From: Terrabacter aerolatus
GTDB taxonomy: Bacteria > Actinomycetota > Actinomycetes > Actinomycetales > Dermatophilaceae
Assembly: GCF_007991735.1 (NCBI RefSeq)
Contig: NZ_BJYX01000004.1
Span: 62,001 to 126,000 of the forward strand
Length of the DNA: 64,000 bases
Direction: 5' to 3'
The notes below the pieces were generated by a model. It was not told the origin of the DNA. It saw nothing but the letters and a program-made list of their open reading frames with translations, and made no database searches. A program made the position numbers and the translations under genes. Each line of letters opens with the position of its first letter. Positions within the stretch are counted from its first letter, which is position 1. Positions 1 to 64,000 of this stretch are shown piece by piece.

Positions 1-977
1 ACCAGCGCGGTGACGCCGGCGCCGAGCTCCCAGGCGGCGATCCCCGCCACCCCGATGAGCAGCGGCCAGTACAGCTCGCGGCGGGCCATGACCTTCTGCC
101 TCTCGATCTGCTCGCTCGTGCCGAACTTCTCGAGGTCGATGCCGTCGACGACAGGGCCGATGCCGTCGCCGGCGGCGCGGTGGACGTAGGTCAGTCCGAG
201 CTGGTCCCCGATGGAGCGCAACGTGGCCTCGCTGACGACCGACCGGGCGTCCTCCCCGGTGGCGGGGTCCTTGATGTAGTCGTTCGTCGTGTCGAACCGC
301 GACCGCGTGGCCTTCATCCGGCCTCCTTCGGTCGTGCCGTAGCCGAGCACCGCGCCACCGTTGACGAGCCGCTTGTCGATGTCGAAGGGCGCCGGCGGCT
401 CGGAGGCTGTCTGCTCCCCGTCGCCGAAGTAGAAGACGACGCGACCACGCTCAGGGGTGCGCTGGTCGGCCTGCTCGAGGAGCGCCTTGAGGCGGTCGTT
501 GGCCTCGCTGACCGACGTGCCGCGCGAGACCTCGTAGGACTCGGGCAGCAGGGTCTCGACGGCCGCGTCGAGGGCCGTGGTGTCGGTCGTCAGCGGTAGG
601 CGTACCCGCGCCGCCTGGTCGAACGTCACGACCGAGTAGCGGGCGCCGGGCAGGGCCGCGGCGATCGCCGAGATGTCGGACGAGACCCCCTCGATCCGCG
701 GACGGGCGTCGCCGTAGTCCTCGGCGATGATGCTGCTCGTCGTGTCGACGACGAAGTAGACGTTGAGGTTGGCGGCCGTCGTGTCGACCTGCTCCCCCGG
801 CACGGCCGGCCGGAACGCGGCGGTCCCGAGCAGCAGCACCGCGACGGTCAGGCGCCAGTGCGTGGCCCGCGACTCGTCGGGAAGCGACCGGGACGAGGGA
901 TTCCACCAGACAGCAGCGAGGGCCGCGACCACGACGACGAGCAGGACGGGCCAGGGCGCCACGGGGAGCAGGCTCAC
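1..977 (-). CDS. VWA-domain membrane protein (3' end outside window)
   Basis: About 325 codons are visible; the C-terminus lies beyond the left edge. The GTG start overlaps the stop of the upstream VWA gene (GTGA), so the two are translationally coupled. N-terminal hydrophobic segments at about residues 9-25 and 43-56 precede a von Willebrand A domain whose metal site reads DTTSS at about 78-82 (a DxTxS form of the usual DxSxS). A further hydrophobic stretch near the visible end suggests a membrane-anchored VWA domain. In MoxR/DUF58/VWA operons such proteins are thought to act as metal-dependent adhesion or assembly factors with the MoxR ATPase; the client here is unknown. Family assignment is firm, function is inferred. 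Confidence 0.85.
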   Translation of the reverse strand, partial: MSLLPVAPWPVLLVVVVAALAAVWWNPSSRSLPDESRATHWRLTVAVLLLGTAAFRPAVPGEQVDTTAANLNVYFVVDTTSSIIAEDYGDARPRIEGVSSDISAIAAALPGARYSVVTFDQAARVRLPLTTDTTALDAAVETLLPESYEVSRGTSVSEANDRLKALLEQADQRTPERGRVVFYFGDGEQTASEPPAPFDIDKRLVNGGAVLGYGTTEGGRMKATRSRFDTTNDYIKDPATGEDARSVVSEATLRSIGDQLGLTYVHRAAGDGIGPVVDGIDLEKFGTSEQIERQKVMARRELYWPLLIGVAGIAAWELGAGVTAL

Positions 978-1963
978 GACGCCCACCTCCGCGTGGCGCC
1001 GATGACCCCGACGAGGCCGATGCCCGCCAGGGTGATCGGAAGGGTCGGGTCGTCGGAGTGGAGCGAGCGCGAGGCGGAGTCGATGAGGGTGGCCTCCTGG
1101 GCCTCCACCGAGCCGACGATGTCCTTGATGGCGGACTGGTCGCTCATGGCGAAGTACCGGCCGCCCGTGCTCGTGACGATCGTCCGCATGTCCGCGGCCT
1201 CCTGGTCGGGGCCGTCCTCCTCCGGGTTCAGCCCGTACACCCGCACGCCCTTGGTCCGCGCGAGCGCGGCCGCTTCGCCCAGGTCGATGATGGGTCGACC
1301 GGCGAGGTGGTTGTCCGTGGCGAAGACGACCGAGCGGGCCCGTTGCAGGTCGACCTTGTCGAAGCTCGAGACGCACGTCGCCAGCCCGTCGCCGATGAGC
1401 GAGGTGCCGCGGCCGTTGAAGGTGCCCGCGAAGAACGAGTCGTAGGCCGGGTCGCCGGTGAGCGCACGTCCCGCCGCGTCGAGCTCCTCGTTGATGAAGT
1501 CGTAGTCGTCGGTGAGCGGGAAGACGGTCGCCGCGGAGCTGTTGAAGATGACGAGACCGATGCGCTCGCCCTCGAAGCTCTTGACGAGCGTCTTGAAGGT
1601 CGACACGAGCGTCGCGTCGTAGGCCGCCATCGAGCCGGAGATGTCGAGGCACAGCATGATGTCTCGGCTGCGCGACTGCGGCTTGTCGACGGTCGTGTCG
1701 AGCGGTCGGGCCGCCCCGACGAGGGCCGCTCCGCCGAGCAGCGCCGCGCTGGCGGCGAGCACCGCCATGCGGATGCGGTGGCGGCGCAGCGCCCGGCGGT
1801 ACTCCGGGAGCTCGGTCAGGGCGCCGGAGTTGGCGACCGCCGCCGAAGCGCGAGCCTGCCGGCGCGACATGAGGCGGTACACGGCATACGCCAGCGCGAG
1901 CGCGAGCAGCGCGCCGACGACGAGGACCCCCGGCCACTTGAGGTCGGGACCGTTCAGCTCCAT
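974..1963 (-). CDS. VWA-domain membrane protein
   Basis: A 329-residue protein. It has TM segments at about 11-31 and 66-86, a VWA domain with the canonical metal-ion site DISGSM at 107-112, and a final hydrophobic segment at about 308-325, the usual batA-like layout with the VWA domain between membrane anchors. The ATG start (MELNG) overlaps the stop of the upstream small membrane protein by 10 bases, and its own stop overlaps the next VWA gene. A longer upstream reading frame exists but would run through the preceding gene, so this start was chosen. Likely partner of the MoxR ATPase encoded in the same operon; substrate unknown. Confidence 0.85.
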   Translation of the reverse strand: MELNGPDLKWPGVLVVGALLALALAYAVYRLMSRRQARASAAVANSGALTELPEYRRALRRHRIRMAVLAASAALLGGAALVGAARPLDTTVDKPQSRSRDIMLCLDISGSMAAYDATLVSTFKTLVKSFEGERIGLVIFNSSAATVFPLTDDYDFINEELDAAGRALTGDPAYDSFFAGTFNGRGTSLIGDGLATCVSSFDKVDLQRARSVVFATDNHLAGRPIIDLGEAAALARTKGVRVYGLNPEEDGPDQEAADMRTIVTSTGGRYFAMSDQSAIKDIVGSVEAQEATLIDSASRSLHSDDPTLPITLAGIGLVGVIGATRRWAS

Positions 1964-2436
1964 CGGGCCACCACCTGCTTGGCGACGGTGCCCGCTCCGG
2001 CGAGCGTCGCCGTCTCGCGAGGGCCGAACTCGCCGGGGTAGAGCGTGCCGACGACCTCGGAGACCGGCGTGAGACGGGAGCCACCCGCCGTGAGCTCGGT
2101 GAGCGTCATCGTGGGCGCGTCGATCCCCGAGACCTCCTGGACGAAATGACGCACGAGGACGCTCAGCTGCTGGTGCGCCCGGCGCTGGCTGATCTCGCCC
2201 GCCGCCGCGCGTCCCAGGACGAGGTCGATCTGCCGGGTGTAGTCGGCCCGCAGCCGCGTCAGCCGGTCGGGTGTGAGCCGCGGCGGCACGACGACCGGGC
2301 GCTCGCGCGTCGACCACCACACCCAGGCGTACCAGGCGGCCACGAGGACGAGCACGCCGACGCCGATCCACAGCCACTTCGCCGCATACGGGTCGGGGGC
2401 GTAGAAGCCCGGCGGCGGCGCGTCAGCGGCGTGCAC
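1954..2436 (-). CDS. single-TM protein of MoxR/DUF58/VWA operon
   Basis: A 160-residue protein starting at GTG (VHAADAP), overlapping the end of the DUF58 gene by 14 bases. After a short proline-rich start there is one strong TM segment (about residues 20-42, rich in W, V and L), a WWSTRERP turn, then a helical cytoplasmic part of about 110 residues without recognisable catalytic motifs. Its place between DUF58 and VWA genes is that of the DUF4381-like proteins in related operons, but I cannot confirm the family from sequence alone. Probably a membrane accessory subunit of the VWA/MoxR system. Confidence 0.7.
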   Translation of the reverse strand: MHAADAPPPGFYAPDPYAAKWLWIGVGVLVLVAAWYAWVWWSTRERPVVVPPRLTPDRLTRLRADYTRQIDLVLGRAAAGEISQRRAHQQLSVLVRHFVQEVSGIDAPTMTLTELTAGGSRLTPVSEVVGTLYPGEFGPRETATLAGAGTVAKQVVARWS

Positions 2437-3310
2437 GGCGCTGCCTCTCGAGCAGGGCGAACACCGTCGCGACGACCTCGTCGGACGACCCGAGGCGGGC
2501 GTGGTTGATGCCGCGGCGGTCGAGCAGCGCGCTGGTGCGCTCGACCCGGTCGCGGACCGACGCGGCATACGCCGCACGCACGCGAGGGTCGAGCCTGACG
2601 AGGGTGGGCAGCGTGTAGGTGTCGGCGACGTCGTAGGTCGTGCGGCTGCCGTCCACGGCGGTGGGGTCGGCGTCCTCGACCGTGATCCAGAGGATCTCGT
2701 GCTGCACGTGCAGGCGGCGCAACAGCTCGTCGAGCTCAGGGTCCAGCTCCTTGTCGTCGGCGACGACCAGGAGCACGAGACGACGGCGGACATGGCGCAC
2801 GATCCACCGCAGCTGTGTCGCGAGGTTGCTCTGGTCGCCGTCGAGCACCGTCGCCGAGTCGACGGCGCGCAGGAGCAGCTCGAGGTGGGCCTCCGACCCG
2901 CGCATCTCGTGCGCGACGGTCGACCCGGCGGTGCCCCGCACGAGGCCCACGAGGTCACCGTGGCGCTGGGCGAGGTAGCCCACGAGGCCTGCGGCTGCGA
3001 CGGCCACCGACTTCTTGGGCTCGCCGCTGCGCGTCGTCGCCGCCATGCCACGACCCGTGTCGACGACGAGCATGAGGTTCTGCTTGCGGGTCGCGACGTA
3101 GCGCTTGACGAGCGGCGACTGGTGGCGCGCCGTCGCGCGCCAGTCGATGTCGCGCACCTCGTCGCCGGGGACGTAGTCGCGCAGGTCGTCGTAGTCGAGG
3201 CTGCGACCGTGGAAGACCGAGGCGTACTCACCCTCGAGGAGGTTTCGGGACCGCCTGCGCGCATGGACGAAGAGCTTGCTCTTCACCCGTGTCAGCAGCG
3301 TCGTCGTCAT
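2423..3310 (-). CDS. DUF58 domain-containing protein
   Basis: A 295-residue protein with the DUF58 signature GDEVRDIDWRATAR at about residues 49-62, followed by a VWA-like fold (VVDTGRGM at about 82-89). No TM helix is visible, so this is the soluble form of the family. It follows the MoxR gene after a 25-base gap and overlaps the next gene, as expected for a MoxR-DUF58-VWA operon. DUF58 proteins are consistently linked to MoxR ATPases, but their biochemical role is not settled. Recognition of the family is secure. Confidence 0.9.
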   Translation of the reverse strand: MTTTLLTRVKSKLFVHARRRSRNLLEGEYASVFHGRSLDYDDLRDYVPGDEVRDIDWRATARHQSPLVKRYVATRKQNLMLVVDTGRGMAATTRSGEPKKSVAVAAAGLVGYLAQRHGDLVGLVRGTAGSTVAHEMRGSEAHLELLLRAVDSATVLDGDQSNLATQLRWIVRHVRRRLVLLVVADDKELDPELDELLRRLHVQHEILWITVEDADPTAVDGSRTTYDVADTYTLPTLVRLDPRVRAAYAASVRDRVERTSALLDRRGINHARLGSSDEVVATVFALLERQRRARR

Positions 3311-4764: not shown

Positions 4765-6900
4765 TCAGGCGTCGATGCGCTCCCGGTCGACCTCGGCCGC
4801 GGACTCGATGATGAAGTCCTTCCGCGGCGCCACCTCGTTGCCCATGAGCAGCTCGAAGACCCGCTCGGCGGCCTCGAGGTCACGCATCGTCACCTTGCGC
4901 AGCGTGCGGTGCCGCGGGTCCATCGTCGTGTCCGCGAGCTGGTCGGCGTCCATCTCACCGAGGCCCTTGTAGCGCTGCATCGGCTGCTTGATCTTCTTGC
5001 CCGACCTCTCGAGGCGGGTCAGCGTGCGACGCATCTCGGCCTCGTTGAAGGTGTAGATGAGCTCGTTCTTCTTGGCGCCGGCGTTGATGACCTCGAGCCG
5101 GTGCAGCGGCGGCATCGCGGCGTAGACGCGACCGGCGTCGACGAGGGGACGCATGTACCGGAAGAAGAGCGTCAGCAGCAGCGTGCGGATGTGGGCGCCG
5201 TCGACGTCGGCGTCGGTCATGATGATGACCTTGCCGTAGCGGGCCGCCGACAGGTCGAAGCTGCGCCCCGACCCGGCTCCGATGACCTGGATGATCGAGG
5301 CGCACTCGGCGTTCTTGAGCATGTCGGCGACCGACGCCTTCTGGACGTTGAGGATCTTGCCGCGAATGGGCAGCAGCGCCTGGAACTCGGAGTTGCGCGC
5401 CTCCTTGGCCGTGCCCATGGCCGAGTCCCCCTCGACGATGAACAGCTCGGACCGCTCGACGTCGGTGGTGCGGCAGTCACGCAGCTTGGAGGGCAGCGTG
5501 GAGCTCTCGAGGGCGTTCTTGCGGCGCTGGGTCTCCTTGTGCAGCCGCGCGCTGATGCGCGACTTCATCTCGGAGACGACCTTCTCGAGCAGCAGCGCCG
5601 ACTGCGACTTGTCGCCCCGCTTGCTCGACGTGAGCCGCTCGGTCAGCTCCTGCTCGACGACCTTGGCGACGATGGCGCGCACGGCGTTGGTGCCGAGCAC
5701 CTCCTTGGTCTGACCCTCGAACTGGGGCTCGGCCAGGCGCACCGTGACGACGGCCGTCAGGCCCGCGAGGATGTCGTCCTTCTCGGGCTTGTCGTTGCCG
5801 GCCTTGAGGCGACGAGCGTTGACCTCGATCTGCTTGCGGAAGACCTTGACGATGGACTGCTCGAAGCCCGTGACGTGGGTGCCGCCCTTGGGCGTCGTGA
5901 TGATGTTGACGAAGGACTGGACCTTCGTGTCGTAGCCCTGGCCCCAGCGCAGCGCGACCTCGACACCGCACTCGCGCTCGAGCTCGGTCGGGGTCATGTG
6001 GCCGTTGACGTCGAGGACCGGCACCGTCTCGGTGAAGGTGCCGGACCCCTCGAGGCGCCAGACGTCGGTGATCGGGGTGTCGGGCGCGAGGAACTCGACG
6101 AAGTCGGTGATGCCCCCGTCGTGCTGGAAGACCTCCTCGATCGGCCCGTCCTGCCCCGGCGTGCCCTTGAGGCGGCGCTCGTCGCGGATGACGAGGCGCA
6201 GCCCCGGAACGAGGAAGGAGGTCTGGCGCGCGCGGCCGAGGATGGCGTCGTAGTCGAGCTCGGCGTCCTTGAGGAAGATCTGACGGTCGGGCCAGAACCG
6301 GACCCGTGAACCGGTGACGCCTCGCTTGGCCTTGCCGACGACCGCGAGCGTGCTCTTCTTCTCGTAGGGGGTGAACGGCGACTCGGGCGAGTGCACGGCT
6401 CCGGCGGCGTCGCCGAACGTGCCGGGCTCACCCCGGCGGAAGCTCATGCCGTAGGTCTTGCCGCCGCGGTCCACCTCGACGTCGAGCCGGGCGGAGAGGG
6501 CGTTGACGACGGACGCGCCGACACCGTGCAGGCCACCTGTGGCGGCATACGACGCACCGCCGAACTTGCCACCCGCGTGCAGCTTGGTGAAGACCACCTC
6601 GACACCGGACAGCCCCGTGCGCGGCTCGACGTCGACGGGGATGCCTCGCCCGTTGTCCCGGACCTCGATCGAGCCGTCGCCGCTGAGGATGACCTCGATG
6701 CCGGTGCACACGCCCGTCAGGGCCTCGTCGACCGCGTTGTCGATGATCTCCCACAGGCAGTGCATGAGACCGCGCTGGTCGGTCGAGCCGATGTACATGC
6801 CGGGGCGCTTGCGCACGGCCTCGAGGCCCTCGAGGACCTGGAGGTGGCGCGCGGTGTAGTCGCCGTTGCCGGAGGGAGCAGGACGGGAGGCGGAAGCCAC
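4765..6900 (-). CDS. parE: DNA topoisomerase IV subunit B (GyrB/ParE family)
   Basis: A 711-residue type IIA topoisomerase ATPase subunit that with a ParC/GyrA-type partner decatenates or supercoils DNA. Visible elements: GHKL motifs EIIDNAVDEAL (about 51-61), NGRGIPV and GGLHGVGASVVNALS; the TOPRIM domain with EGDSAMGTAKEARN and DADVDGAHIRTLL; and the C-terminal QRYKGLGEM motif. The neighbouring DUF7455 gene is characteristic of the second actinobacterial GyrB-like gene next to sigA, which favours ParE over the replication-origin GyrB. The partner subunit is not in the window. Start ATG chosen at MASASR; downstream is a hairpin terminator. An alternative call is simply a GyrB paralogue. Confidence 0.85.
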   Translation of the reverse strand: MASASRPAPSGNGDYTARHLQVLEGLEAVRKRPGMYIGSTDQRGLMHCLWEIIDNAVDEALTGVCTGIEVILSGDGSIEVRDNGRGIPVDVEPRTGLSGVEVVFTKLHAGGKFGGASYAATGGLHGVGASVVNALSARLDVEVDRGGKTYGMSFRRGEPGTFGDAAGAVHSPESPFTPYEKKSTLAVVGKAKRGVTGSRVRFWPDRQIFLKDAELDYDAILGRARQTSFLVPGLRLVIRDERRLKGTPGQDGPIEEVFQHDGGITDFVEFLAPDTPITDVWRLEGSGTFTETVPVLDVNGHMTPTELERECGVEVALRWGQGYDTKVQSFVNIITTPKGGTHVTGFEQSIVKVFRKQIEVNARRLKAGNDKPEKDDILAGLTAVVTVRLAEPQFEGQTKEVLGTNAVRAIVAKVVEQELTERLTSSKRGDKSQSALLLEKVVSEMKSRISARLHKETQRRKNALESSTLPSKLRDCRTTDVERSELFIVEGDSAMGTAKEARNSEFQALLPIRGKILNVQKASVADMLKNAECASIIQVIGAGSGRSFDLSAARYGKVIIMTDADVDGAHIRTLLLTLFFRYMRPLVDAGRVYAAMPPLHRLEVINAGAKKNELIYTFNEAEMRRTLTRLERSGKKIKQPMQRYKGLGEMDADQLADTTMDPRHRTLRKVTMRDLEAAERVFELLMGNEVAPRKDFIIESAAEVDRERIDA

Positions 6901-7534: not shown

Positions 7535-8023
7535 GTGATCACGGCGACGAACGTCCTCGTTCTGCTCGCCATGGTCGTGGGCACCGTCGGCATCGTCGTC
7601 CCGGTGCTGCCGGGACTCGTCGTGGTCTGGGGCGCCGTGCTCGTGTGGGCGATCGGGCGTCAGGACGGGCCGGGGTGGCTCGCTCTCGGCATCGCGACGA
7701 TCGTGTATGCCGTGGGCCTCGTCGCGAAGTACCTGCTGCCCGGGCGTCGGATGAGGACTGCAGGGGTGGACGGTGTCATCGTGGCGGTGGCCCTGGTCGT
7801 CGCCGTCGTGGGTTTCTTCGTCGTTCCCGTCGTCGGCGGTCCCGTCGGTTTCGTCCTGGCGATCTACGTGCTCGAGCTGGCGAAGCGGCGGGAGCACGCG
7901 GGTGCCTGGCGGGCGACCCTCTCGGCCATCCGGGCCGTGGGTCTCAACATCGGCATCGAGCTGGCGACCGCGTTCGCGATCGTCGCGACGTGGAGCGTCG
8001 CGGTCTACGTCACCAGCGGTTGA
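7535..8023 (+). CDS. DUF456 family membrane protein
   Basis: A 162-residue very hydrophobic protein with about five TM segments (roughly residues 5-25, 28-45, 48-68, 80-108 and 130-155) and glycine-rich turns such as PVLPGLVVVWGA and VVGGPVGFVLAIYVLEL, which match the DUF456 family. Start is GTG (VITATN). It ends 45 bases before the convergent DUF3040 gene, with a small hairpin between. Its Tyr-Ala at about residues 57-58 is encoded TAT GCC within the recurring GTATGCCG motif. Function unknown. Confidence 0.8.
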   Translation: MITATNVLVLLAMVVGTVGIVVPVLPGLVVVWGAVLVWAIGRQDGPGWLALGIATIVYAVGLVAKYLLPGRRMRTAGVDGVIVAVALVVAVVGFFVVPVVGGPVGFVLAIYVLELAKRREHAGAWRATLSAIRAVGLNIGIELATAFAIVATWSVAVYVTSG

Positions 8024-10713: not shown

Positions 10714-13700
10714 TTAGTGCCCCGAGCTTCCCGGGCTCGCGTGCCACAGCTTGCGCGGTGGCCCTCCGACGGTCTCGGTGGGAACGAGCCCGCTCGTGCC
10801 GCGGGGTCCCCTGACATCGTCACCGGCCGGCTTGATGTCGGCGTACGGCGACTGCTTGAACCCCGAGGCGTGGACGAGCACACGTCGACCGTCCGGCCCC
10901 TCACCCACCCCGGCAGGTCCGGTGGATCCGGAGAGTGCGTTGGCCCGCTCCCACGCCGCCCGGTCGGCGGCGTCGAGCGCGTCGCGGACGGCGACGACCC
11001 CGCCGGAGGTCCACGCCTCCTGCAGCGCGGACAGCTCCCACGCACCGGTGGCCCGGATCGAGACGCCGCGCGGGCCGGTGCGTCGCACGACCCCGCGACA
11101 GAGGAGCAGCCACGAGTGGAAGACGGTGGCGGCATACGGACCCTGGACGTCCTCGAAGAAGGTGAGGTCGCAGGGACCCGTGGCGTCGTCGAGGGTGAGG
11201 AAGACGACGCGGCGCCCGGTGCGGATCGGTGGCGTCTGGGTGGCGACCTTGACCCCGGCCACGAGGACCTCACGCCCGCTGCGTCCGGTGAGGAGGTCAC
11301 GCGCCCGGGTGACGCCGAGCGCGTCGAGCAGCGGGGCGTAGAAGTCGACGACGTGCCCGCTGGCGTCGAGGCCGAGCACCTCGAGCTCGGCCCGGACCTG
11401 CTCGGGGCCGGTCATCTCGGGCAGCCCGCTCGTCGCGGAGAGTCGTGGTGTGTCGCCGAGGTCGAGCGTCAGCTGGGTCGCGAGGTGCTGGGGTGCTCCG
11501 GCGGAGGCCTGTGACTGCGCGGCGGCCAGGGCCCGGATGTCACCCGTGGCCGAGACCGACGTGACGCGCCCCCTGGTCGCGCTGGACCGGCTCGCGGCGG
11601 AGACGCGTGAGGAGGTGCGGCGCGACGATCGCTGCGAGGCCGACCAGCGGTCGAGCTCGGCGACGTGGAGCAGCAGGTCGCGCCGCGTGACCCGACCACG
11701 ACGGCCGAGGCCGGCACCGGCGCGTCCCACGACGTCGGAACCGCTCTCTCCCCGTCGGGACGGACCACCGAGGTGGATGTCGTGCAGGGTGTCGAATCCC
11801 CCTGCGAGCACGAGCTTCTCGGCGATCGGGCGGGAGACGTGGGCGCGCTGCCAGAAGTCGGACAGGCTGGAGTAGGGCTGGCCCGCGACGATCTGCGCGA
11901 CCTCGGCCTCGCTGATGCCGTGGACGTCCGCGAGCGAGAGCCGGATGGCCTCGCCGCCGTCGTCGGTGCGCTCGAACCGGTAGGCGCCGGTCGAGACGTT
12001 GACGTCGAGCCCGAGGATCGTGATGCCGAAGGTGCGGGCGTCGTCGAGGATGAGGCGCTTGGGGTACATGCCCGGGTCGTGGGTGAGCACCCCGGCGAGG
12101 AAGGCCGCGGGGTGGTGCGTCTTGAGCCACGCCGACTGGTAGGTCGGCAGCGCGAAGGCCGCGGCGTGGGCCTTGCAGAAGCCGAACGACGCGAAGGCCT
12201 TGAGGACCTCCCAGATCTTGTCCGCGACGTCGGGGGCGTAGCCGCGGTCCCGGACGGCGGGTCGCCACCACGCCTCGATGCGCTTCTGCCCGTCGGGCGT
12301 GCCGAGCGCACGGCGCACCTCGTCGGCCTGGGCCAGGGTCACGCCGGTCGTCTCGGCGACGATCATCAGCACCTGCTCGTGGAAGACGACGACGCCCTCG
12401 GTCTCCTCGAGCGCCGGCACGAGGGTGGGGTGGAGGTAGGAGGGGTCCTTCCATCCCTGCCTCGCGTTGAGGAAGGGGATGATCATGTCGCTCTTGACCG
12501 GCCCGGGCCGGAAGAGCGAGATGTCGATGATGAGGTCGTCGAAGCTGCGTGGCCCGAACTTGCCGATGAGCTCTCGTTGCCCGGGGCTCTCGATCTGGAA
12601 GCACCCGAGGGTCTTCGTCGACCGGACGAGCTCGAAGGTCGGCTCGTCGTCGAACGGCACCTGGTCCTCGTCGTCGAGGTCGATGTGGTCGCCGTCGACG
12701 CGCTCGACCTCGTCGATCGCGTGGGCCATCGCCGACTGCATGCGGATGCCGAGGACGTCGAGCTTGAGCAGCCCCATCTCCTCGACGTCGTCCTTGTCGA
12801 ACTGGCTCATGGGGAAGCCGAGCCAGCTCGCCTCGACGGGCGTGCGGTCGAGCAGGACGGAGTCGGACAGCACGACGCCGCACGGGTGCAGCGCGATGTG
12901 CCGGGGCAGCCCGTCGAGCCGCTCGACGATGTCGAACATCAGCTGCAGGCGCGGCACGTCGAGTCCGCTCGCCCGAAGCTCGGGAAGCTCGGCGAGGGCG
13001 TTGCGCACGTTGCGGGCGGCGATGTGCGGGAAGGCCTTGGCCATGGCGTCGATCTCGGGCGGCGGCAGTCCGAGTGCGGCCCCGGCGTCGCGGATCGCGT
13101 GGCGCACCCGGTAGGTGTCCATCATCGAGACGCACGTGACGCGGTCACCGCCGAAGTGCTCGAGGATGCGCTCGTAGATCTCGGTGCGACGAGCCGACTC
13201 GACGTCGATGTCGATGTCGGGCAGCTCGGCGCGCAGGGGCGAGCAGAAGCGCTCCATGAGCAGGCCGTGGCGCATCGGGTCGACGCCGGAGATGCCGAGG
13301 AGGTAGTTGACGAGCGACCCCGCGCCGGACCCGCGGGCCGCGACCCGGACCCCCATCTCTCGGATGAGGTCGCAGACCTGCGCGACGGTGAGGAAGTAGG
13401 TCGCGTAACCGAGGGTCTCGATGACGCCGAGCTCGTCCTCGAGCCGGTCGCTGACCGCGACGAGCTCGCTCTCGGTGCGCCCGGGGTAGCGGGCCGGGAT
13501 CGACTCGCGGCACCGGCGGGCGAGGACCCGGTGCGGGTTGGTGCCGGGTCGGATGCCGAGGACCCCGGGCTCGGGGAGGTGGACCGATCCGATGCCGAGG
13601 TCGGCTCGGGGGTCCTGGACGCATTCGGCCGCGAGCGCCGTGGTGCGGGCCAGCAGTTCGCGGGCCTGCTCGCGGGCGAGCGCGCCCCCACCGACGAGGC

Positions 13701-15673: not shown

Positions 15674-15776
15674 TAGGACAACCCTAACCCCCGCCGCCGA
15701 CACCGTGTCAAGAAGGGCTGGGACCCGCTCGACCGGGCACACGGCATACGACCGACGAGCCCCCGCGGGCGTCGTG

Positions 15777-27215: not shown

Positions 27216-27346
27216 CCCGTCAGCCTAGACGTCGCCGACGGGTGCCCCCGCACGGGTCCGCATCCCGAAACCTTCGCGACCCGCTGGTCCACCGAGGGCG
27301 TATGCCGTGTGGCGCGGACCGGCACGACCCGCCGCGTCGCCGTGGC

Positions 27347-46983: not shown

Positions 46984-47841
46984 GTGACCACCACCAACGC
47001 ACCCATCGTCGTGACCGGAGCGGCCGGTAAGGCCGGCAGGGCCGCCGTGGCCCACCTGCTCGAGCACGGCTACGACGTCCTCGCCACCGACCTCACGCAG
47101 GCCCCCGAGGGCCTCGACACGGCATACCTCAGGGCCGACCTCACCGACCACGGGCAGGTCGTCGACGTCCTGACCGGGGCCGACGCGGTCGTGCACCTGG
47201 CCAACATCCCCGCCCCCGGTCTGCGCCCCGCGGCCCGCACGCTCACCGAGAACACGACGATGAACGCGCACGTCTTCCTCGCGGCCCAGACGCTCGGGCT
47301 CCGGAAGGTCGTGTGGGCCTCGAGCGAGACGACGCTCGGGCTCGCCTTCGGTCCCGACGCTCCCCCGCGCTACGCACCCGTCGACGAGGACCACTACCCC
47401 CACCCCGAGTCGACGTACGCCCTGTCCAAGGTGCTCTCCGAGACGATGGCCGAGCACATCAGCACCTGGAGCGGCATCCCCTTCGTGGGGCTGCGCTTCT
47501 CCAACATCTTCACGGACGAGGACTACCGCCGGGTGGCGAGCTTCCAGGACGACGCCACGGCCCGCATGTGGAACCTCTGGGGCTACATCGACGTGCGTGA
47601 CGCGGCGGCCTCGTGCCGCAACGCCCTGGAGGCCGACACGACGGGCTCGCTCAACCTCATCATCGCCAACGACGACACGATCATGGAGCGCCCGAGCGCC
47701 GACCTGCTCTCGGAGGTCTTCCCGGACGTCGAGGTGCGCGGGGACGTCACCGGGCACCAGACGCTGCTGTCCAACGCCCGGGCGCGCCGGCTCATCGGCT
47801 TCGAGCCGCAGCACGGGTGGCGGCAGGGACGGCCCGCCTGA
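46984..47841 (+). CDS. NAD-dependent epimerase/dehydratase family protein
   Basis: A 285-residue extended SDR. The nucleotide-binding motif is VVTGAAGKAGRAAVAHL (about 9-25), with ADLTDHGQVVDVL, AVVHLANIPAPG, and the catalytic YALSK (Tyr-xxx-Lys, about 140-144). The LDLANIPA and WASSETTLG features are those of a subgroup acting on nucleotide sugars or small hydroxy compounds; substrate unknown. GTG start just after GGAG-like sequence. A strong hairpin follows. Confidence 0.87.
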   Translation: MTTTNAPIVVTGAAGKAGRAAVAHLLEHGYDVLATDLTQAPEGLDTAYLRADLTDHGQVVDVLTGADAVVHLANIPAPGLRPAARTLTENTTMNAHVFLAAQTLGLRKVVWASSETTLGLAFGPDAPPRYAPVDEDHYPHPESTYALSKVLSETMAEHISTWSGIPFVGLRFSNIFTDEDYRRVASFQDDATARMWNLWGYIDVRDAAASCRNALEADTTGSLNLIIANDDTIMERPSADLLSEVFPDVEVRGDVTGHQTLLSNARARRLIGFEPQHGWRQGRPA

Positions 47842-52451: not shown

Positions 52452-52711
52452 GCGGGGCGGACGAGTCGGAGGTCGTCGACGCACGCGGTGAGCGCTGCCC
52501 GCTCCCGGTCATCCGGCTCGCGCGACGCGTGGCCGAGCGGCCGCACCTGCGGTTCGTCACGGTGCTGGCCACCGACCCCGCCGCCGCGCACGACGTGCCG
52601 GCGTGGTGCCGGATGCGCGGCCACCGCTTCGTCGAGGCGCGTGCGGAGGACGGCCACACGGCATACGTCGTCGAGGTGGTCAGGCCCAGCAGGCCGGCAG
52701 CGGGGCCCTGA
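52448..52711 (+). CDS. TusA-like sulfurtransferase
   Basis: An 87-residue protein with the TusA/SirA signature RCPLPVIRLAR (active Cys in CPLP, about 17-20) and the fold pattern VTVLATDPAAAHDVPAWCRMRGHRFVE. TusA proteins carry persulfide sulfur for tRNA thiolation or cofactor synthesis. Start overlaps the upstream PLP-fold gene, and the last 32 bases overlap the convergent aat gene. Together the two genes resemble split forms of fused desulfurase-TusA proteins. Confidence 0.88.
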   Translation: MSGADESEVVDARGERCPLPVIRLARRVAERPHLRFVTVLATDPAAAHDVPAWCRMRGHRFVEARAEDGHTAYVVEVVRPSRPAAGP

Positions 52712-55051: not shown

Positions 55052-56218
55052 TCAGAGGGCCGAGGGCGACCAGGTCCTCGCGACGCGTGCCGTGCGGTCG
55101 GCGAGCCGGGCGGCGGGCTCGGCGAGCGCCGCGGCGACCTGGTCGGGGCGCTCCGCGACGGCATACACCCCCGACAGGCCGGCGGTCATGGCCTCGCGGC
55201 GACCGACGAGCGACTGTCCCGGCACGGCGATGACGGGCACCCCGACGCGGGCCGCGGCCTCCGCGACACCGACGACGACCTTGCCCCTCAGGGACTGCCA
55301 GTCGAAGGTGCCCTCCCCCGTGACGACGAGGTCGGCGGAGGCGACGAGGTCGACGAAGCCGACGGCGTCGAGGACGGCCTCCACCCCGGAGACGCGACGG
55401 GCGCCGAGCAGGTGCAGGGCGTAGCCGAGTCCCCCGGCAGCGCCGGCGCCCGGCTCGCGCTCGGGCTTGAGCAGCGTGCCCGTCAGCAGGTCCCGGGCCG
55501 GGGGCCGCACCCGTGCCACGACGCTGGCGAAGTGGCCGAGCGCGTTCTCGAGCCGTTGCGCGTCCTCCTCCGACGCGCCCTTCTGGGGTGCGAAGACCGC
55601 ACTGGCGCCCTTGAGCCCGAGCAGGGGCGAGTCGACGTCGCTCGCGATGACGAGGTCGACGCCGCGCAGCCGGTCCCGGGCGGCGTCGAGGCCGGCGACG
55701 TCGTCCGCCGTCGTGGCGCCGAGCGCGAGTCCGCCCTGGGCGAGACGGGCTGCTGGCCCGACCCCGAGGGCCGCGAGCAGCCCGGCGCCGGCGTCGTTCG
55801 TCCCCGAGCCGCCGAGCCCGATGACGACCCGTCGCGCGCCGGCGTCGAGGGCCGCGAGCACGAGCGTGCCGACTCCGGTCGTCGTCGTGCGCGTCGGGTC
55901 GCGCTCGTCCGGGGCCAGCAGGTGCAGCCCCGCTGCCTGGGCCGACTCCACGTATGCCGTGCGCCCGCCGGCGCCGTTCGTCAGCAGGATGGTGCCGGGC
56001 ACCTCGCGACCGAGCGGGTCGGTCGTGACGACCGCGTGCACCTCGCCGGGGAGGTTCTCGGCGAGGACGTCGACGAAGCCGGGGCCGCCGTCGGAGAGCG
56101 GGACGAGCGTCAACCGGTCCGTGGGCGCCCGGCGGGCCCAGCCGTCGGCCATCGCAGCGGCGGCCTGCGAGGCGGTGAGGGTGCCGGTGTAGCAGTCGGG
56201 CGCGATGATGACGTGCAC
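55052..56218 (-). CDS. glycerate kinase
   Basis: A 388-residue GarK/GlxK-family enzyme phosphorylating D-glycerate. Motifs: VIIAPDCYTGTLTASQAAAAMADGWAR at the start, PLSDGGPGFVDVL, VIGLGGSGTNDAGAGLLAALGV, and VVTGEGTFDWQSLRGKV. The canonical substrate region PxKG is replaced by a CYTGTLTA stretch at the N-terminus; the usual form is DSFKGSLTA, so the Lys is absent. Start GTG at 56218. Equivalent to Rv2205c. Confidence 0.88.
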   Translation of the reverse strand: MHVIIAPDCYTGTLTASQAAAAMADGWARRAPTDRLTLVPLSDGGPGFVDVLAENLPGEVHAVVTTDPLGREVPGTILLTNGAGGRTAYVESAQAAGLHLLAPDERDPTRTTTTGVGTLVLAALDAGARRVVIGLGGSGTNDAGAGLLAALGVGPAARLAQGGLALGATTADDVAGLDAARDRLRGVDLVIASDVDSPLLGLKGASAVFAPQKGASEEDAQRLENALGHFASVVARVRPPARDLLTGTLLKPEREPGAGAAGGLGYALHLLGARRVSGVEAVLDAVGFVDLVASADLVVTGEGTFDWQSLRGKVVVGVAEAAARVGVPVIAVPGQSLVGRREAMTAGLSGVYAVAERPDQVAAALAEPAARLADRTARVARTWSPSAL

Positions 56219-56367
56219 GTCCGGAATCCTCCCACTGCCTCCGGTGCCGAGGTCACCGTGGGACGGACCCGACGCCGACCTCACCCCGTCACCACCTCGT
56301 CACCACCCGTCACGACCACGGCGTCGCCTCGTCATCGACCCGATCGGCGGCGGCATACGATCTGCTC

Positions 56368-60019: not shown

Positions 60020-60829
60020 ATGGGAGACAACACGTTCGTCGCCGGCCAGCAGCCCTGGCTCGAGCGTCTCGGCAACCTGCGCAACGTCGTGCGCCAGGAG
60101 CTGGTCACCCGACAGCTCGAGGCCCACCTGCCCAGGGGTCCCCTCCGTGTCCTCGACGTCGGCGCCGGCCAGGGCACGCAGGCGTTGCGGATGGCCCGGC
60201 GCGGCCACTCCGTCACCGCGGTCGAGCCGGACGGACGCATGCGGGCCGCCTTCGAGCAGGCCGCCGCCGGGCTCACCCCCGGCGAGCGCGAGCACGTCAC
60301 CCTCGTGGCCACCGACCTCGCCGGTCTCGCCAGCGTCACGCAGCCGACGGCATACGACGTCGTCATGTGCCACGGGGTCCTCATGTACCTCCCCGAGAGC
60401 CGTTCAGCGGTGGCCGCGCTCGCCCGCCGCACGGCATCCGGCGGCGTCGTGTCGATCGTGGCCCGCAACGGCGGTGCGATGGCCTGGCGCCCGGCGGCCC
60501 GGCACGACTGGAGCGCCGCGCTCGCCATGCTCGACGAGACGCGGCGAGCGGCCGCCGAGGGCCGGGATGCCCGCTACCGCAACGAGATCGGCGTGGATGC
60601 CCGCGCCGACACCCTTGCCTCGCTCACCGCGGACTGCGAGGCCGCCGACCTGGACGTCGTCGCCTGGTACGGCATCAGGGTCGCCAGCGACGACGTCGCG
60701 GTCGACGAGCCCGCACCCGCGGGTGACGCGCTGGCCACGCTCCTCGACGTCGAGGAGCGGCTGGGCGCGACGGACCCGTACCGCGCCCTCGGCACCCTTG
60801 TCCACGTCGTCGCGCGACCACGCACCTGA
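60020..60829 (+). CDS. class I SAM-dependent methyltransferase
   Basis: A 269-residue enzyme. Motif I is LRVLDVGAGQGTQALRMARRG (about 43-63), with VTAVEPDGRMR and a DVVMCHGVLMYLPE motif. The gene structure is similar to the SmtA group acting on small substrates. The start MGDNTFVAGQQPWLERLGNLRNVVRQELVTRQL shows a long helix. A CGGCATAC copy codes its T-A-Y at about 109-111 (GCA TAC). Substrate unknown. Confidence 0.87.
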   Translation: MGDNTFVAGQQPWLERLGNLRNVVRQELVTRQLEAHLPRGPLRVLDVGAGQGTQALRMARRGHSVTAVEPDGRMRAAFEQAAAGLTPGEREHVTLVATDLAGLASVTQPTAYDVVMCHGVLMYLPESRSAVAALARRTASGGVVSIVARNGGAMAWRPAARHDWSAALAMLDETRRAAAEGRDARYRNEIGVDARADTLASLTADCEAADLDVVAWYGIRVASDDVAVDEPAPAGDALATLLDVEERLGATDPYRALGTLVHVVARPRT

Positions 60830-60861
60830 CGCACGCGGCCCGACCGTGCTTGGCTCGGGAC

Positions 60862-61449
60862 ATGGACGAAGCCGACCGCGTGCAGCAGGCGTTCGCCGCC
60901 GTCCCGCGAGCCCACTTCCTCCCCCGCGGGGCGCGCTCGCGCGCCGGCGAGGACATCCCGATCCTCATCGGCCGCGGCCAGACGAGCTCCCAGCCCCGCA
61001 CCGTCGGCGACATGCTGCGCCTGCTCGACGTGAGGCCGGGCCAGCGGGTGCTCGACGTCCGGTCGGGGTCGGGCTGGACGACGGCCCTGCTGGCCCACCT
61101 CACCGGTGCGGCCGGAGAGGTCGTCGGCGTGGAGCTGGAGCCCGACCTGGCTCGCTGGGGCGCCGCCAACGTCGCGAGGGCAGGTATGCCGTGGGCGACC
61201 GTCCACCGGTCCGCGCCGGGCGTGCTCGGTGACCCCGAGCACGGTCCGTGGGACCGGATCCTCGTCTCCGCCGACGCGCCGGCTCTCCCCCGGTCGCTGG
61301 TCGAGCAGCTGGGCGATCCCGGTCGGCTCGTGCTGCCCGTGGCCGGCACCATGACGCTCGTCGTGCGCGAGCACGGCTCACTCGTCAGCAGCCACCACGG
61401 GCACTACCGGTTCGTGCCCCTCCGCTCGGACACCGACCCGGCGACGTGA
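60862..61449 (+). CDS. protein-L-isoaspartate O-methyltransferase-like protein
   Basis: A 195-residue protein. N-terminal VQQAFAAVPRAHFLPRGARSRAGEDIPI and RGQTSSQPRTVGDMLRLLDVRPGQRVLDV are PCMT features, followed by GWTTALLAHLTG. The usual motif I (DxGxGSGY) reads DVRSGSGW, so the first glycine is Arg. Protein is shorter than most PCMT (about 210). Repairs isoaspartyl residues if active. ATG after a GGGA element. Confidence 0.8.
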   Translation: MDEADRVQQAFAAVPRAHFLPRGARSRAGEDIPILIGRGQTSSQPRTVGDMLRLLDVRPGQRVLDVRSGSGWTTALLAHLTGAAGEVVGVELEPDLARWGAANVARAGMPWATVHRSAPGVLGDPEHGPWDRILVSADAPALPRSLVEQLGDPGRLVLPVAGTMTLVVREHGSLVSSHHGHYRFVPLRSDTDPAT

Positions 61450-62205: not shown

Positions 62206-63573
62206 TCAGGGCTGCAGATCGGCGAACGCGAGCGGTGCCCGCGTGACGGCATACGTGGCGAAGTAGAGCTTCTCGACCGAACCGTCAGGGGCACGCACGA
62301 CCTCGAGGACCTCACCGCGCTCCCGGCCCTCGACCGCGCGGTAGCGGTCGGCGCCCTCCGGGGCGTAGCGGGTCTCGGAGAGCTGCTCGTCCTCGGCCAG
62401 CCGCGACCACAGCTCTGCATCGCGCACGAAGAACGTCAGCGGTGACCCCTCGGACCACCACAGGCCGAGCAGCTCGGCCAGGGCCGGCTGCTCCCTCTCG
62501 GGCACCCAGGCGGCGGCGAGCGTCGGCTCGGTGTCGAGGACCGCCTCGACGAGGTCGGTCGCCAGCGCCAGCGTCAGCGCACCGGACGTCGCGTTGGCGA
62601 AGACGACCGCGCCGATGCCGTCCTTGCGCCGGACCCGCAGGCCGGTGAGGAAGCCCGGCATCGCCCCGCCGTGGCCGACGTAGACCCGGTCGCCGCGCCG
62701 GCCCATCCCGAAACCGAGTCCGTAGGCGCCGGTCCAGCCGTCGGTGTCGGTCATGATGATCGGCCGGCACATCTCCTCGACGGTCTCGGGGCGCACGACC
62801 CGGTCGTCGGGGTTCGCGACGTAGGCGGCGTAGCGCGCCATGTCGGCGACGGTCGACCACAGGCCCCCGAGCGGCGCCGTCGCGTTGAGGGTGAAGAGCG
62901 GCTCCTCGCTCGCCGTGCCGGCGTAGGGGTCGACCTGGTAGCCGATGGCCCGGTCGTCCGCCGGGACGAGCCCGGTCCGCGTCATGCCGAGCGGGTCGAG
63001 GACGCGCTCGCGGACGACGTGCTCCCAGTCCTGGCCCGTGACCCGCTCGACGACCTGGCCGAGGAGGCCGTAGGCGAGGTTCGAGTAGTGGAACGCATGA
63101 TGCGCGGGGAGCACCTGCTCGGCCTGCTCGACACCCGCGAGGAACTCGTCGCGCTCCGGGGCCTCGAGGCTCTCCCAGATGTGGCCGACGGGCTCGCGCT
63201 GGAGACCGGAGGCGTGAGCCAGCATCTGGCGCAAGGGAACCCGGGCGTGCGTGGTGCCGGGGAGGTAGGCCTCGAGGGTGTCGTCGAGGGAGAGCCGTCC
63301 GTCGTCGCGCAGTGCCATGACCGCCAGCGCCGTGAACGTCTTGGTCACCGAGCCGATCATGAACTGGGTGTCGTCGGTGGCCGGCACCGGACCGGCGCCG
63401 AGCCGCGCCGACCCCACGTGAGCCGACCAGACGAGGTGCCCGTCACGCACGACGCCGACGCTGACGCCGGGCGCGCGCCACGAGCGCTGCGCCGCGACCA
63501 CGCGCCCGAGCAGGTCGCGCTCGAGCCCCGGCGACAGGGTGGGGACGGACGCGCCGGCCGACGCCGAGCTCAC
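62206..63573 (-). CDS. serine hydrolase, class C beta-lactamase family
   Basis: A 455-residue penicillin-binding-protein-like hydrolase. Catalytic SVTK (SxxK, about 74-77), the YSN in HYSNLAYGLLG (about 167-169), and HGG in VGHGGAMPGF (about 303-305) are present. A C-terminal lipocalin-like domain of about 130 residues (ETRYAPEGADRYRAVEG) follows. No clear signal peptide, so may be cytosolic. GTG start overlaps the preceding small gene. Esterase or peptidase role; substrate unknown. Confidence 0.88.
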   Translation of the reverse strand: MSSASAGASVPTLSPGLERDLLGRVVAAQRSWRAPGVSVGVVRDGHLVWSAHVGSARLGAGPVPATDDTQFMIGSVTKTFTALAVMALRDDGRLSLDDTLEAYLPGTTHARVPLRQMLAHASGLQREPVGHIWESLEAPERDEFLAGVEQAEQVLPAHHAFHYSNLAYGLLGQVVERVTGQDWEHVVRERVLDPLGMTRTGLVPADDRAIGYQVDPYAGTASEEPLFTLNATAPLGGLWSTVADMARYAAYVANPDDRVVRPETVEEMCRPIIMTDTDGWTGAYGLGFGMGRRGDRVYVGHGGAMPGFLTGLRVRRKDGIGAVVFANATSGALTLALATDLVEAVLDTEPTLAAAWVPEREQPALAELLGLWWSEGSPLTFFVRDAELWSRLAEDEQLSETRYAPEGADRYRAVEGRERGEVLEVVRAPDGSVEKLYFATYAVTRAPLAFADLQP

Positions 63574-63785: not shown

Positions 63786-63843
63786 ACCGTCACCCTAGTT
63801 GGCGGCTCGTTTGACGGGCGGCTGCCCGTCGTGCGACGGTTCG

Positions 63844-63957
63844 CCTAACCGAAGGACGATGGGGCAAGCCGGTGCGACTCCGGCGCTGACCCGCAACCGT
63901 GATGCCACTCCCCGCCGCCAGCGGCCAGGGGTGACCAGTCGGAAAACCCGCGTCCCA
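63844..63957 (+). promoter_or_regulatory. cobalamin riboswitch
   Basis: The conserved core is present: ggggcaagccggtgcgactc, then ccggcgctgacccgcaaccgtgatg, and the terminal accagtcggaaaacccg. Outer bases ggacg (63854-63858) can pair with cgtcc (63951-63955) to close the structure. It faces right, so the controlled gene lies past the window edge; in this synteny a cobalamin-related gene or transporter is expected. The linked DUF3043 and downstream cobT position in M. tuberculosis agrees with that. Confidence 0.85.
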
Positions 63958-64000
63958 CCGGCTCCTTTGTCAGTCTGTCGTGGAATGCGGACCGGAGTCA

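What the first reader, a model, noticed from the sequence alone, without database searches (positions are those of the whole stretch)
1..64000. A short non-palindromic motif, RCGGCATAC (GTATGCCGY), is strongly over-represented
I count at least 26 copies of CGGCATAC/GTATGCCG. Plus-strand starts of the GGCATAC part: 1883, 2564, 6544, 11131, 15743, 18281, 24870, 29188, 31483, 33211, 40488, 47121, 52660, 55160, 56352, 60349, 62248; starts of GTATGCC: 7705, 19028, 23193, 27300, 36041, 42762, 51539, 55952, 61184. Every GGCATAC found has C before it and A or G before that. With about 71 percent GC, the 8-mer is expected roughly twice on both strands. Coding contexts differ: Tyr-Ala (TAT GCC), Gly/Arg-Met-Pro (GGT or CGT ATG CCG) and Ala-Tyr (GCA TAC), so rare codons are used in three frames or orientations. 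Three copies are noncoding (15743, 27300, 56352). This argues for selection on DNA. Candidate roles are recombination (chi-like), chromosome segregation or uptake signal, nucleoid-protein site, or a methylation motif. In genes, 18 of 23 show GTATGCCG on the coding strand.
Basis: partly seen in the sequence, partly recalled or inferred. Interest (0 to 1): 0.85.

Follow-up and report, generated by a model that had tools for sequence, protein, structure and literature searches.

The report
Putative DNA uptake word in Terrabacter
A soil bacterium and many of its relatives carry thousands of copies of one eight-letter DNA word (or a close variant of it), which looks like the tag some bacteria use to recognise and take up DNA of their own kind, a habit so far described in only two families of quite different bacteria.

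Summary
Confirmed. CGGCATAC occurs 26 times in the window (0.66 expected) and 2,163 times in the 4.42 Mb genome (reversed word 195), equally on both strands. Codon usage does not explain it: 181 coding copies against 8.6 after codon shuffling, 69 intergenic against 1-2. The genome is a Terrabacter or very near. The word is a family trait (Intrasporangiaceae/Dermatophilaceae): 109 of 186 family genomes hold at least 341 copies, while the 392 non-family genomes of a phylum sample hold at most 386. Some relatives without it carry thousands of copies of a changed word (CGGCATCC, (C/G)CGCATAC, CGNCGTAC); others relax one position (CGNCATAC). These dialects follow the tree. Copies are denser between genes, densest where genes converge; close pairs are mostly inverted and can fold as hairpins; no strand bias. 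Most of this matches DNA uptake sequences of Neisseriaceae and Pasteurellaceae; an excess of near-matches does not. The genome has comEA, comEC and Tad/Flp loci, as needed for transformation in Micrococcus luteus, but no PilM. Best explanation: a DNA uptake sequence system in Gram-positive bacteria. Biased uptake and a receptor are not shown. Chi, segregation and codon artefact are disfavoured; methylation or another binding protein remains possible.

The parts
1882..1889 (+). CGGCATAC copy, in gene 974-1963 (-), VWA domain
2563..2570 (+). CGGCATAC copy, in gene 2423-3310 (-), DUF58
6543..6550 (+). CGGCATAC copy, in gene 4765-6900 (-), DNA gyrase B family
7705..7712 (-). CGGCATAC copy, in gene 7535-8023 (+)
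11130..11137 (+). CGGCATAC copy, in gene 10714-14727 (-), DNA polymerase III alpha
15742..15749 (+). CGGCATAC copy, intergenic
18280..18287 (+). CGGCATAC copy, in gene 17708-18628 (-), MTHFR
19028..19035 (-). CGGCATAC copy, in gene 18712-19818 (+), polyprenyl synthetase; codons read Gly-Met-Pro
23193..23200 (-). CGGCATAC copy, in gene 21844-23784 (+), PASTA protein kinase
24869..24876 (+). CGGCATAC copy, in gene 24759-25823 (-), beta-eliminating lyase
27300..27307 (-). CGGCATAC copy, intergenic
29187..29194 (+). CGGCATAC copy, in gene 28054-29316 (-), histidine kinase
31482..31489 (+). CGGCATAC copy, in gene 31087-31761 (-)
33210..33217 (+). CGGCATAC copy, intergenic by my gene calls, inside a longer possible ORF 32766-33356 (-)
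36041..36048 (-). CGGCATAC copy, in gene 35822-37111 (-); codons read Ala-Tyr
40487..40494 (+). CGGCATAC copy, in gene 40023-41072 (-), glycosyl transferase family 3
42762..42769 (-). CGGCATAC copy, in gene 42530-43294 (+); codons read Arg-Met-Pro
47120..47127 (+). CGGCATAC copy, in gene 46984-47841 (+), NAD-dependent epimerase; Ala-Tyr
51539..51546 (-). CGGCATAC copy, in gene 51339-52451 (+), class V aminotransferase
52659..52666 (+). CGGCATAC copy, in gene 52448-52711 (+); Ala-Tyr
55159..55166 (+). CGGCATAC copy, in gene 55052-56218 (-), glycerate kinase
55952..55959 (-). CGGCATAC copy, in gene 55052-56218 (-), glycerate kinase; Ala-Tyr
56351..56358 (+). CGGCATAC copy, intergenic, just upstream of the gene at 56368 (NadA)
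60348..60355 (+). CGGCATAC copy, in gene 60020-60829 (+); Ala-Tyr
61184..61191 (-). CGGCATAC copy, in gene 60862-61449 (+); Gly-Met-Pro
62247..62254 (+). CGGCATAC copy, in gene 62206-63573 (-)

Best explanation
CGGCATAC is most likely the DNA uptake sequence of a naturally transformable actinobacterium. Shown: the word is strongly over-represented, dispersed, strand-symmetric, independent of coding frame, family-specific, and replaced by related words (dialects) in sister clades. Inferred: a surface protein of the competence apparatus (probably a minor pilin of the Tad/Flp pilus, or a partner of ComEA) binds the word on double-stranded DNA. Fragments carrying it are taken up more often, enter through ComEA/ComEC and recombine into the chromosome. 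Because fragments with the word enter more often than those without, copies accumulate wherever the sequence tolerates them: most densely between genes, especially at gene ends where an inverted pair can also serve as a terminator hairpin, and inside genes mainly in the cheapest codon frames. When the receptor changes specificity, a new word builds up and the old one decays.
For: 2,163 copies in 4.42 Mb, control 195. CDS 181 against 8.6 codon-shuffled; intergenic 69 against 0.9-1.7; 1.33 per kb between genes against 0.42 in genes (on 524 kb: 198/8.9 and 73/1.0). Intergenic density 2.52 per kb between convergent genes, 1.29 tandem, 0.72 divergent; 8 of 12 pairs within 60 bases have the order GTATGCCG..CGGCATAC, 6 of these 8 intergenic, and these 6 fold at -20.5 to -50.8 kcal/mol, z -1.8 to -10.8. 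No strand bias: 101:92 over 340 kb (p 0.56 against even, 1.6e-11 against a 75% bias). Family-limited: 109 of 186 family genomes have at least 341 copies (my count of the listing); the 22 other-family genomes of the order stay at or below 167; the 392 non-family genomes of the phylum sample at or below 386. Dialects in whole genomes: CGGCATCC 3,816, 3,838 and 3,949 in two genera, 260-916 in 40 others and 1,336 in G009; CGCATAC 1,368-2,328 in the 4 g21 genomes, at most 383 in 40 others; CGCCGTAC 3,117 in G126, 80-429 in 17 others, noticed first in 100 kb and then confirmed; in that 100 kb the word is CGNCGTAC (C 69, T 57, A 26, G 25; reversed 8, 9, 1, 2). CGHCATAC 1,155-2,147 in G012, 4 of 4 g12 and 2 of 3 g52 genomes. 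Dialects sit in clades of a ComEC tree. In a scan without a preset word they rank first in G000, G012, G015, G024, G025, G028 and G030, and an overlapping word ranks first in G126. Sites are kept across species more than matched 8-mers: T. tumescens 17 of 21 against 0.50, p 0.004; Humibacillus 6 of 8 against 0.30, p 0.011; G006 11 of 16, p 0.13. Machinery in the own genome: ComEC, ComEA beside it (SLBB plus helix-hairpin-helix), Tad loci, the combination required in Micrococcus luteus (PMC4322843, passages read). Orientation bias inside genes, 131 of 181, is also described for uptake sequences (PMC2346458, abstract).
Against: No uptake or transformation was shown for any of these species in what I read. 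ComEC and TadE-type genes are also present in relatives where I found no dialect (ComEC in 57 of 58, TadE in 43 of 44), so their presence does not track the word. No receptor was identified. One-mismatch forms are not enriched as a group (CDS 300 against 332 expected, intergenic 51 against 39.7; only CGGCATCC, CGGCACAC and CGGCATAG lean up), whereas a gradual uptake-driven build-up might leave more near-misses. The number of close pairs (12) is little above chance (8.3); only their orientation is unusual, and two of the six intergenic ones fold no better than 6 and 11 of 200 shuffles. The relaxed CGHCATAC words have high reversed controls (325-959 in the genomes counted as positive, G139 only 1.2-fold). 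The phage test rests on one phage of a related host (2 copies in 49 kb, control 2). Several relatives (G009, G010, G014, G017, G018, G022) gave no convincing word in 60-200 kb, G065 only an unconfirmed one, and in G023 the word ranked low.
Confidence: 0.66

Rival explanations
1. The word is the target of a DNA methyltransferase or another modification or self-marking system, and is over-represented because copies protect or regulate, as has been suggested for HIP1 in cyanobacteria (recalled).
For: The word is sharply defined and contains adenines; modification enzymes are patchy and change specificity, which could give dialects (inference). Near-matches are not in excess as a group, which suits a strict enzyme site.
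Against: Known restriction-modification targets are usually neutral or avoided rather than enriched about 20-fold (recalled). Intergenic and gene-end enrichment and inverted pairs are not expected. Clade-wise inheritance over many genera is unlike mobile methylase genes (inference).
Confidence: 0.13
2. A Chi-like recombination signal read by the AddAB/AdnAB/RecBCD-type nuclease of these bacteria (which nuclease they have was not examined).
For: Non-palindromic 8-mer about every 2 kb.
Against: No strand bias over 340 kb, 101:92, against about 75% for a Chi of the E. coli kind (that figure recalled). Turnover of the word between genera and even within one genus (G126 against G033 and G127). Threefold preference for intergenic DNA.
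Confidence: 0.07
3. A binding site of an abundant nucleoid, segregation or termination protein.
For: Slightly even dispersal (coefficient of variation of spacing 0.84), enrichment at gene ends, and hairpin pairs could suit a terminator role.
Against: Most copies are inside genes (181 of 252), where terminators would be harmful; no orientation or polarity along the contig; the words change between close relatives although chromosome-organising proteins are usually conserved (second half recalled).
Confidence: 0.08
4. A by-product of codon and codon-pair usage in a GC-rich genome.
For: Codon preference may explain why GTATGCCG is the commoner sense orientation (131 of 181).
Against: 181 against 8.6 expected after codon shuffling, five frame/orientation classes used, and 69 intergenic copies against 1-2.
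Confidence: 0.01

Closest known systems
DNA uptake sequence (DUS) and its dialects in Neisseriaceae, receptor ComP
   Same: About 10^3 copies per genome, related dialect words between relatives that follow the phylogeny, intergenic permissiveness, inverted pairs at terminators (PMC3630211, passages read); competence genes present.
   Different: Different phylum (Gram-positive, GC-rich); no PilM-type type IV pilus gene in the own genome; no ComP-like receptor identified; no uptake assay.
Uptake signal sequence (USS) of Pasteurellaceae
   Same: Short non-palindromic word on both strands, with one orientation commoner inside reading frames (PMC2346458, abstract).
   Different: Sequence unrelated (USS recalled); copies here are not concentrated at gene termini (deciles 17 33 20 21 17 13 22 16 22 17); near-misses not enriched as a group.
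Natural transformation of Micrococcus luteus through two tad loci plus comEA/comEC
   Same: An actinobacterium too; own genome carries comEA, comEC and Tad loci.
   Different: The term 'uptake sequence' occurs 0 times in the main text of PMC4322843; I did not test M. luteus genomes.
Chi of RecBCD / AddAB
   Same: Short non-palindromic word with many copies.
   Different: No strand bias, family-limited, dialects within a genus.
HIP1 of cyanobacteria (recalled)
   Same: Genome-wide over-represented octamer with unclear origin.
   Different: HIP1 is palindromic; this word is not.

Membership tests
DNA uptake sequence (DUS/USS) as a genomic signature | very strong, genome-wide over-representation of one short non-palindromic word | tested here: met
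   2,163 against 195 for the reversed word; codon-shuffle and intergenic tests
DNA uptake sequence (DUS/USS) as a genomic signature | both orientations, no replication-strand bias | tested here: met
   101:92 over 340 kb; 1,091:1,072 in the genome, whose contig orientations are arbitrary
DNA uptake sequence (DUS/USS) as a genomic signature | denser in intergenic, permissive DNA | tested here: met
   1.33 against 0.42 per kb; convergent 2.52, tandem 1.29, divergent 0.72
DNA uptake sequence (DUS/USS) as a genomic signature | inverted pairs forming terminator-like hairpins | tested here: inconclusive
   8 of 12 close pairs in the hairpin orientation, 6 intergenic, four of these six folding clearly better than shuffles; but the number of pairs (12) is near chance (8.3)
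DNA uptake sequence (DUS/USS) as a genomic signature | related dialect words in related taxa, following phylogeny | tested here: met
DNA uptake sequence (DUS/USS) as a genomic signature | excess of near-match words | tested here: not met
   24 one-mismatch words: CDS 300 against 332, intergenic 51 against 39.7
Functional DUS/USS system | natural competence genes in the genome | tested here: met
   ComEC, ComEA, Tad loci
Functional DUS/USS system | preferential uptake of DNA carrying the word | not testable with these tools
   needs a transformation or uptake assay
Functional DUS/USS system | a cognate DNA-binding receptor | tested here: inconclusive
   ComEC and TadE presence does not track the word; no candidate singled out
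Neisseriaceae DUS/ComP system proper | type IV pilus with minor pilin ComP | tested here: not met
   PilM_2 absent from G000; present in 13 of 58 genomes, of which 2 of the 36 family members (G028, G033). ComP itself was not searched
Chi | orientation biased with replication direction | tested here: not met
   (one 340 kb contig; origin position unknown)
HIP1-type palindromic octamer | palindrome | tested here: not met
   CGGCATAC is not its own reverse complement (seen directly; that HIP1 is palindromic is recalled)
Methyltransferase target | the word is modified in the cell | not testable with these tools
   no long-read signal data

The most novel reading that the evidence does not exclude
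A working DNA uptake sequence system outside the Proteobacteria: about 30 genera of the Intrasporangiaceae/Dermatophilaceae gate natural transformation by an eight-base word, read by the Tad/Flp-pilus competence apparatus rather than by a type IV pilus with ComP, with at least four dialects, one of them replaced within a genus. It would be an independent origin of sequence-gated bacterial sex.
Probability: 0.6. Interest if true: 0.92.

Novelty: new variant of a known kind. Interest (0 to 1): 0.82.

Why it matters
[quoted passage not shown] An independent case in Gram-positive soil bacteria would show that sequence-gated transformation evolved more than once and on another pilus type. It would predict that dozens of poorly studied genera, including the Phycicoccus/Tetrasphaera group, are naturally transformable, and hand experimenters the tag to put on DNA to transform them. 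Dialect pairs inside one genus would make receptor identification and the old question of why uptake words accumulate directly testable.

Tried and rejected
Type IVa pilus as the uptake machine: PilM_2 absent from the own genome and found in only 2 of 36 family genomes searched. ComEC or TadE presence as the discriminating gene: nearly universal in the genomes searched. Codon and codon-pair usage: rejected. Low-order Markov rankings bring up codon-driven words such as CGAGCAG, so I used codon shuffling plus an intergenic filter. Regions without the word as horizontally acquired DNA: the two longest gaps hold a flagellar cluster and a helix-turn-helix gene beside a weak Gp49-like gene, too little to conclude. 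A mobile-DNA test on Tetrasphaera phage TJE1: not enriched, but one phage only and its host was not itself counted. Words for G009, G010, G014, G017, G018 and G022: none convincing; G016 gave none on about 40 kb and was too small. For G018 a 9-mer GTCGTTGAA ranked high but not in the codon-shuffled tests. G023 (CGGCATAC 1,142, control 453) reached the top rows only weakly, most of its sampled copies being intergenic, and its codon-shuffled table does not show the word. I had thought that G126 might be Intrasporangium flavum, because both lack CGGCATAC; the I. flavum locus L128 has no CGCCGTAC or CGTCGTAC and its ComEC does not group with G033 of G126's genus, so I dropped that. Literature searches for a published uptake word in this phylum; for the word itself: (71 papers hold one of the two strands of the word; the 20 listed look unrelated by title and abstract start). 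None found in that library, which lacks most subscription papers and all preprints.

Full report
What was claimed and whether it is there. The 8-mer CGGCATAC occurs 26 times in the 64 kb window, at exactly the places listed; shuffles that keep dinucleotides give 0.66 and never more than 3. In the genome that holds the window (4,420,518 bases, 62 contigs) there are 1,091 forward and 1,072 reverse copies, against 105 and 90 for the same letters read backwards, about one per 2 kb. In 464 kb of this genome the core is sharp, the base before it is A 52%, G 28%, C 18%, T 2%, the base after it mostly G or C, and only weak preferences extend further. So RCGGCATAC is the window's local version; the core is CGGCATAC.

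It is not a coding effect. I wrote a small self-trained gene finder (61 genes, 90% of the window) and used it throughout, so coding/intergenic classes depend on it. In 484 kb of own sequence, 181 copies lie in genes against 8.6 (sd 3.2) after shuffling synonymous codons, in five frame and orientation classes; 69 lie between genes against 0.9-1.7 expected; 2 straddle a boundary. On 524 kb the figures are 198 against 8.9 and 73 against 1.0. Density is 1.33 per kb between genes and 0.42 in genes. In genes, GTATGCCG is on the coding strand in 131 of 181 (p 1.5e-9), mainly in the Tyr-Ala frame. An orientation bias inside reading frames is also reported for Pasteurellaceae and Neisseria uptake sequences (PMC2346458, abstract).

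Layout. Over a continuous 340 kb of contig C1 the orientation is 101:92, with no relation to GC skew by eye; this excludes a 75:25 bias (p 1.6e-11) unless an origin or terminus lies in the contig. Spacing is slightly more even than random (coefficient of variation 0.84, 268 gaps). Between genes the word is densest between convergent genes (21 copies in 8.3 kb, 2.52 per kb), then tandem (36 in 28.0 kb, 1.29), then divergent (15 in 20.9 kb, 0.72). Twelve pairs lie within 60 bases, little more than the 8.3 expected; but 8 of the 12 have the order GTATGCCG..CGGCATAC, and 6 of these 8 are between genes. Folded by reference, the six give -20.5 to -50.8 kcal/mol; four fold better than at least 199 of 200 shuffles, the other two are matched by 6 and 11 of 200. 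Inverted uptake-sequence pairs at terminators are described in Neisseriaceae (PMC3630211, passages).

Who it is and who has it. All 8 other same-genus genomes have 1,423-2,358 copies. In the family, 109 of 186 genomes (30 of 53 genera) have at least 341 copies, up to 4,724; the other 77 have 7-322 (my count of the listing). Outside the family there is nothing comparable: at most 167 in 22 genomes of other families of the order, and at most 386, in a 7.5 Mb genome with a control of 176, among the 392 non-family genomes of a phylum sample. In named loci of 11-21 kb around comEA the word is frequent in Terrabacter, Intrasporangium oryzae and I. chromatireducens, Humibacillus, Knoellia and Phycicoccus, and has no copy in three Janibacter loci and one each of Dermacoccus, Kytococcus and I. 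flavum.

Dialects. In relatives poor in CGGCATAC I looked for other words without prior choice, by Markov models, codon shuffling and, in 16 genomes with enough sequence, a filter asking for excess both in codon-shuffled genes and in intergenic DNA. Words found this way were then counted in whole genomes. CGGCATCC: 3,816 and 3,838 in the two genomes of genus g17 and 3,949 in G034 of g27; of the other 41 of 44 genomes, 40 hold 260-916 and G009 1,336. CGCATAC, in the sample preceded by C or G: 1,368-2,328 in the four g21 genomes, at most 383 in the other 40. CGCCGTAC: 3,117 in G126 (control 294), 80-429 in the other 17 genomes; G126 has only 19 copies of CGGCATAC, whereas its two congeners G127 and G033 have 3,681 and 1,062. 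This word was noticed in 100 kb and then confirmed; in that 100 kb the third position is open: CGC 69, CGT 57, CGA 26, CGG 25 before CGTAC, reversed 8, 9, 1 and 2. A relaxed third position, CGHCATAC besides CGGCATAC, is seen in G012 (2,147), four g12 genomes (1,155-1,641) and two of three g52 genomes (1,550 and 1,157; the third, G065, has 45), against 21-407 in the other genomes searched; but the reversed controls are 325-959 in those positive genomes, so the excess over control ranges from 1.2-fold (G139) to about 5-fold. G065 may carry a further word, (C/G)GGTCTAC: 27 and 18 per 100 kb against 1 and 4 reversed, but no whole-genome count was possible after my last search, and it does not lead the two-filter list.

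Phylogeny. A ComEC tree of 47 rows (48 loci were chosen from the 100 fetched; one row of 350 residues or fewer was dropped) puts the CGGCATCC pair (G024, G034), the CGCATAC pair (G028 and an Intrasporangiaceae MAG) and two relaxed CGNCATAC pairs (two Tetrasphaera-like MAGs; two Flexivirga) each together with starred support; the label 'CGGCATAC at 0.3 per kb or more' needs 8 changes against 16.0 in shuffles, none of 500 as low. So the word is inherited with the lineage and is changed or lost on some branches. Related words replacing each other within a family is what Frye and colleagues describe as DUS dialects (PMC3630211, passages).

Conservation. Against T. tumescens, 11 of 15 alignable window sites and 6 of 6 sites near comEA are intact (17 of 21; matched 8-mers about 0.50; p 0.004); against G006 11 of 16 (p 0.13); against G001 3 of 4; Root85 6 of 6; Humibacillus 6 of 8 against 0.30 (p 0.011); Intrasporangium oryzae 3 of 6; Knoellia no site alignable. 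Every alignable intergenic site was intact in these comparisons, but they are few and repeat the same sites. The 24 one-mismatch words are not in excess as a group (CDS 300 against 332; intergenic 51 against 39.7), which means strict recognition or weak drive and speaks against a gradual build-up through near-matches as proposed for H. influenzae and N. gonorrhoeae (PMC1939737, abstract and passages).

Machinery. The own genome has ComEC and beside it ComEA, with SLBB and helix-hairpin-helix domains, and TadE-type pilins at three places. Two of these lie in clusters read in L254 and L255: each has a T2SSE-type ATPase; L255 has a T2SSF protein and a TadE; L254 has a small DUF4244 protein in the place of the Flp pilin and a TadE just under Pfam's cut-off. 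The order and the names tadZ, flp and tadF are my reading, partly recalled. In Micrococcus luteus two separate tad clusters are required for transformation, and tad clusters together with ComEA/ComEC are frequent in Actinobacteria (PMC4322843, passages). PilM, a marker I chose for the type IV pilus of the kind that carries ComP in Neisseria, is absent from the own genome. ComEC and TadE are nearly universal in the genomes searched (57 of 58; 43 of 44), including those without a word, so they cannot be the specificity factor by presence alone.

Interpretation. The signature matches uptake sequences in most of the features I could test, is inconclusive in one (inverted pairs) and fails one (near-match excess). 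Chi-like and segregation signals are disfavoured by strand symmetry and by the fast change of the word; codon usage is refuted; methylation or another binding protein is not excluded. The steps shown are the sequence facts; receptor binding, biased uptake and recombination are inferred. [quoted passage not shown] I therefore call it a new variant of a known kind: it works like a DUS system, on other machinery and in another phylum, with function still to be tested.

Noticed in passing
L241-L245 (G065:C8:1-100000): Candidate further dialect (C/G)GGTCTAC in a genome whose sampled congeners carry CGGCATAC; 27 and 18 per 100 kb against 1 and 4 for the reversed words. No whole-genome count was possible.
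   Followed up: partly
G009 whole genome; L029-L032, L114: CGGCATCC 1,336 copies against 614 and 772 in two other genomes of its genus: perhaps a weak or decaying dialect.
   Followed up: no
G150 in genus g69: Only 50 copies of CGGCATAC while the other 30 genomes of the genus hold 394-1,901; no sequence sampled beyond a small TadE locus (L215).
   Followed up: no
L015:8155-18646 (own contig C1, about 128.2-138.6 kb): The longest stretch without the word in the sampled own sequence (10.5 kb) covers a flagellar cluster (FHIPEP, FlhB, export family 1, FliO, MotA, hook/rod proteins).
   Followed up: partly
L013:12012-20000 and the start of L014 (own contig C1, 92.0-101.3 kb): The second longest gap holds a helix-turn-helix gene beside a gene with a sub-threshold Gp49 match (toxin-antitoxin-like) and two long genes without any Pfam match, perhaps mobile DNA.
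   Followed up: partly
G478 (phylum sample): 161 copies of CGGCATAC against 30 reversed in 1.8 Mb: a mild excess outside the family, unexplained.
   Followed up: no
L254 (G000:C19:1-20000) and L255 (G000:C15:81001-101000): Two Tad/Flp-type loci in the own genome, recalling the two tad clusters both needed for competence in Micrococcus luteus; their small pilin-like proteins are receptor candidates.
   Followed up: partly
L045-L048 (sample of G018): The 9-mer GTCGTTGAA occurs 16 times in 80 kb against 0.9 expected by an order-2 model but does not stand out in the codon-shuffled tests.
   Followed up: partly
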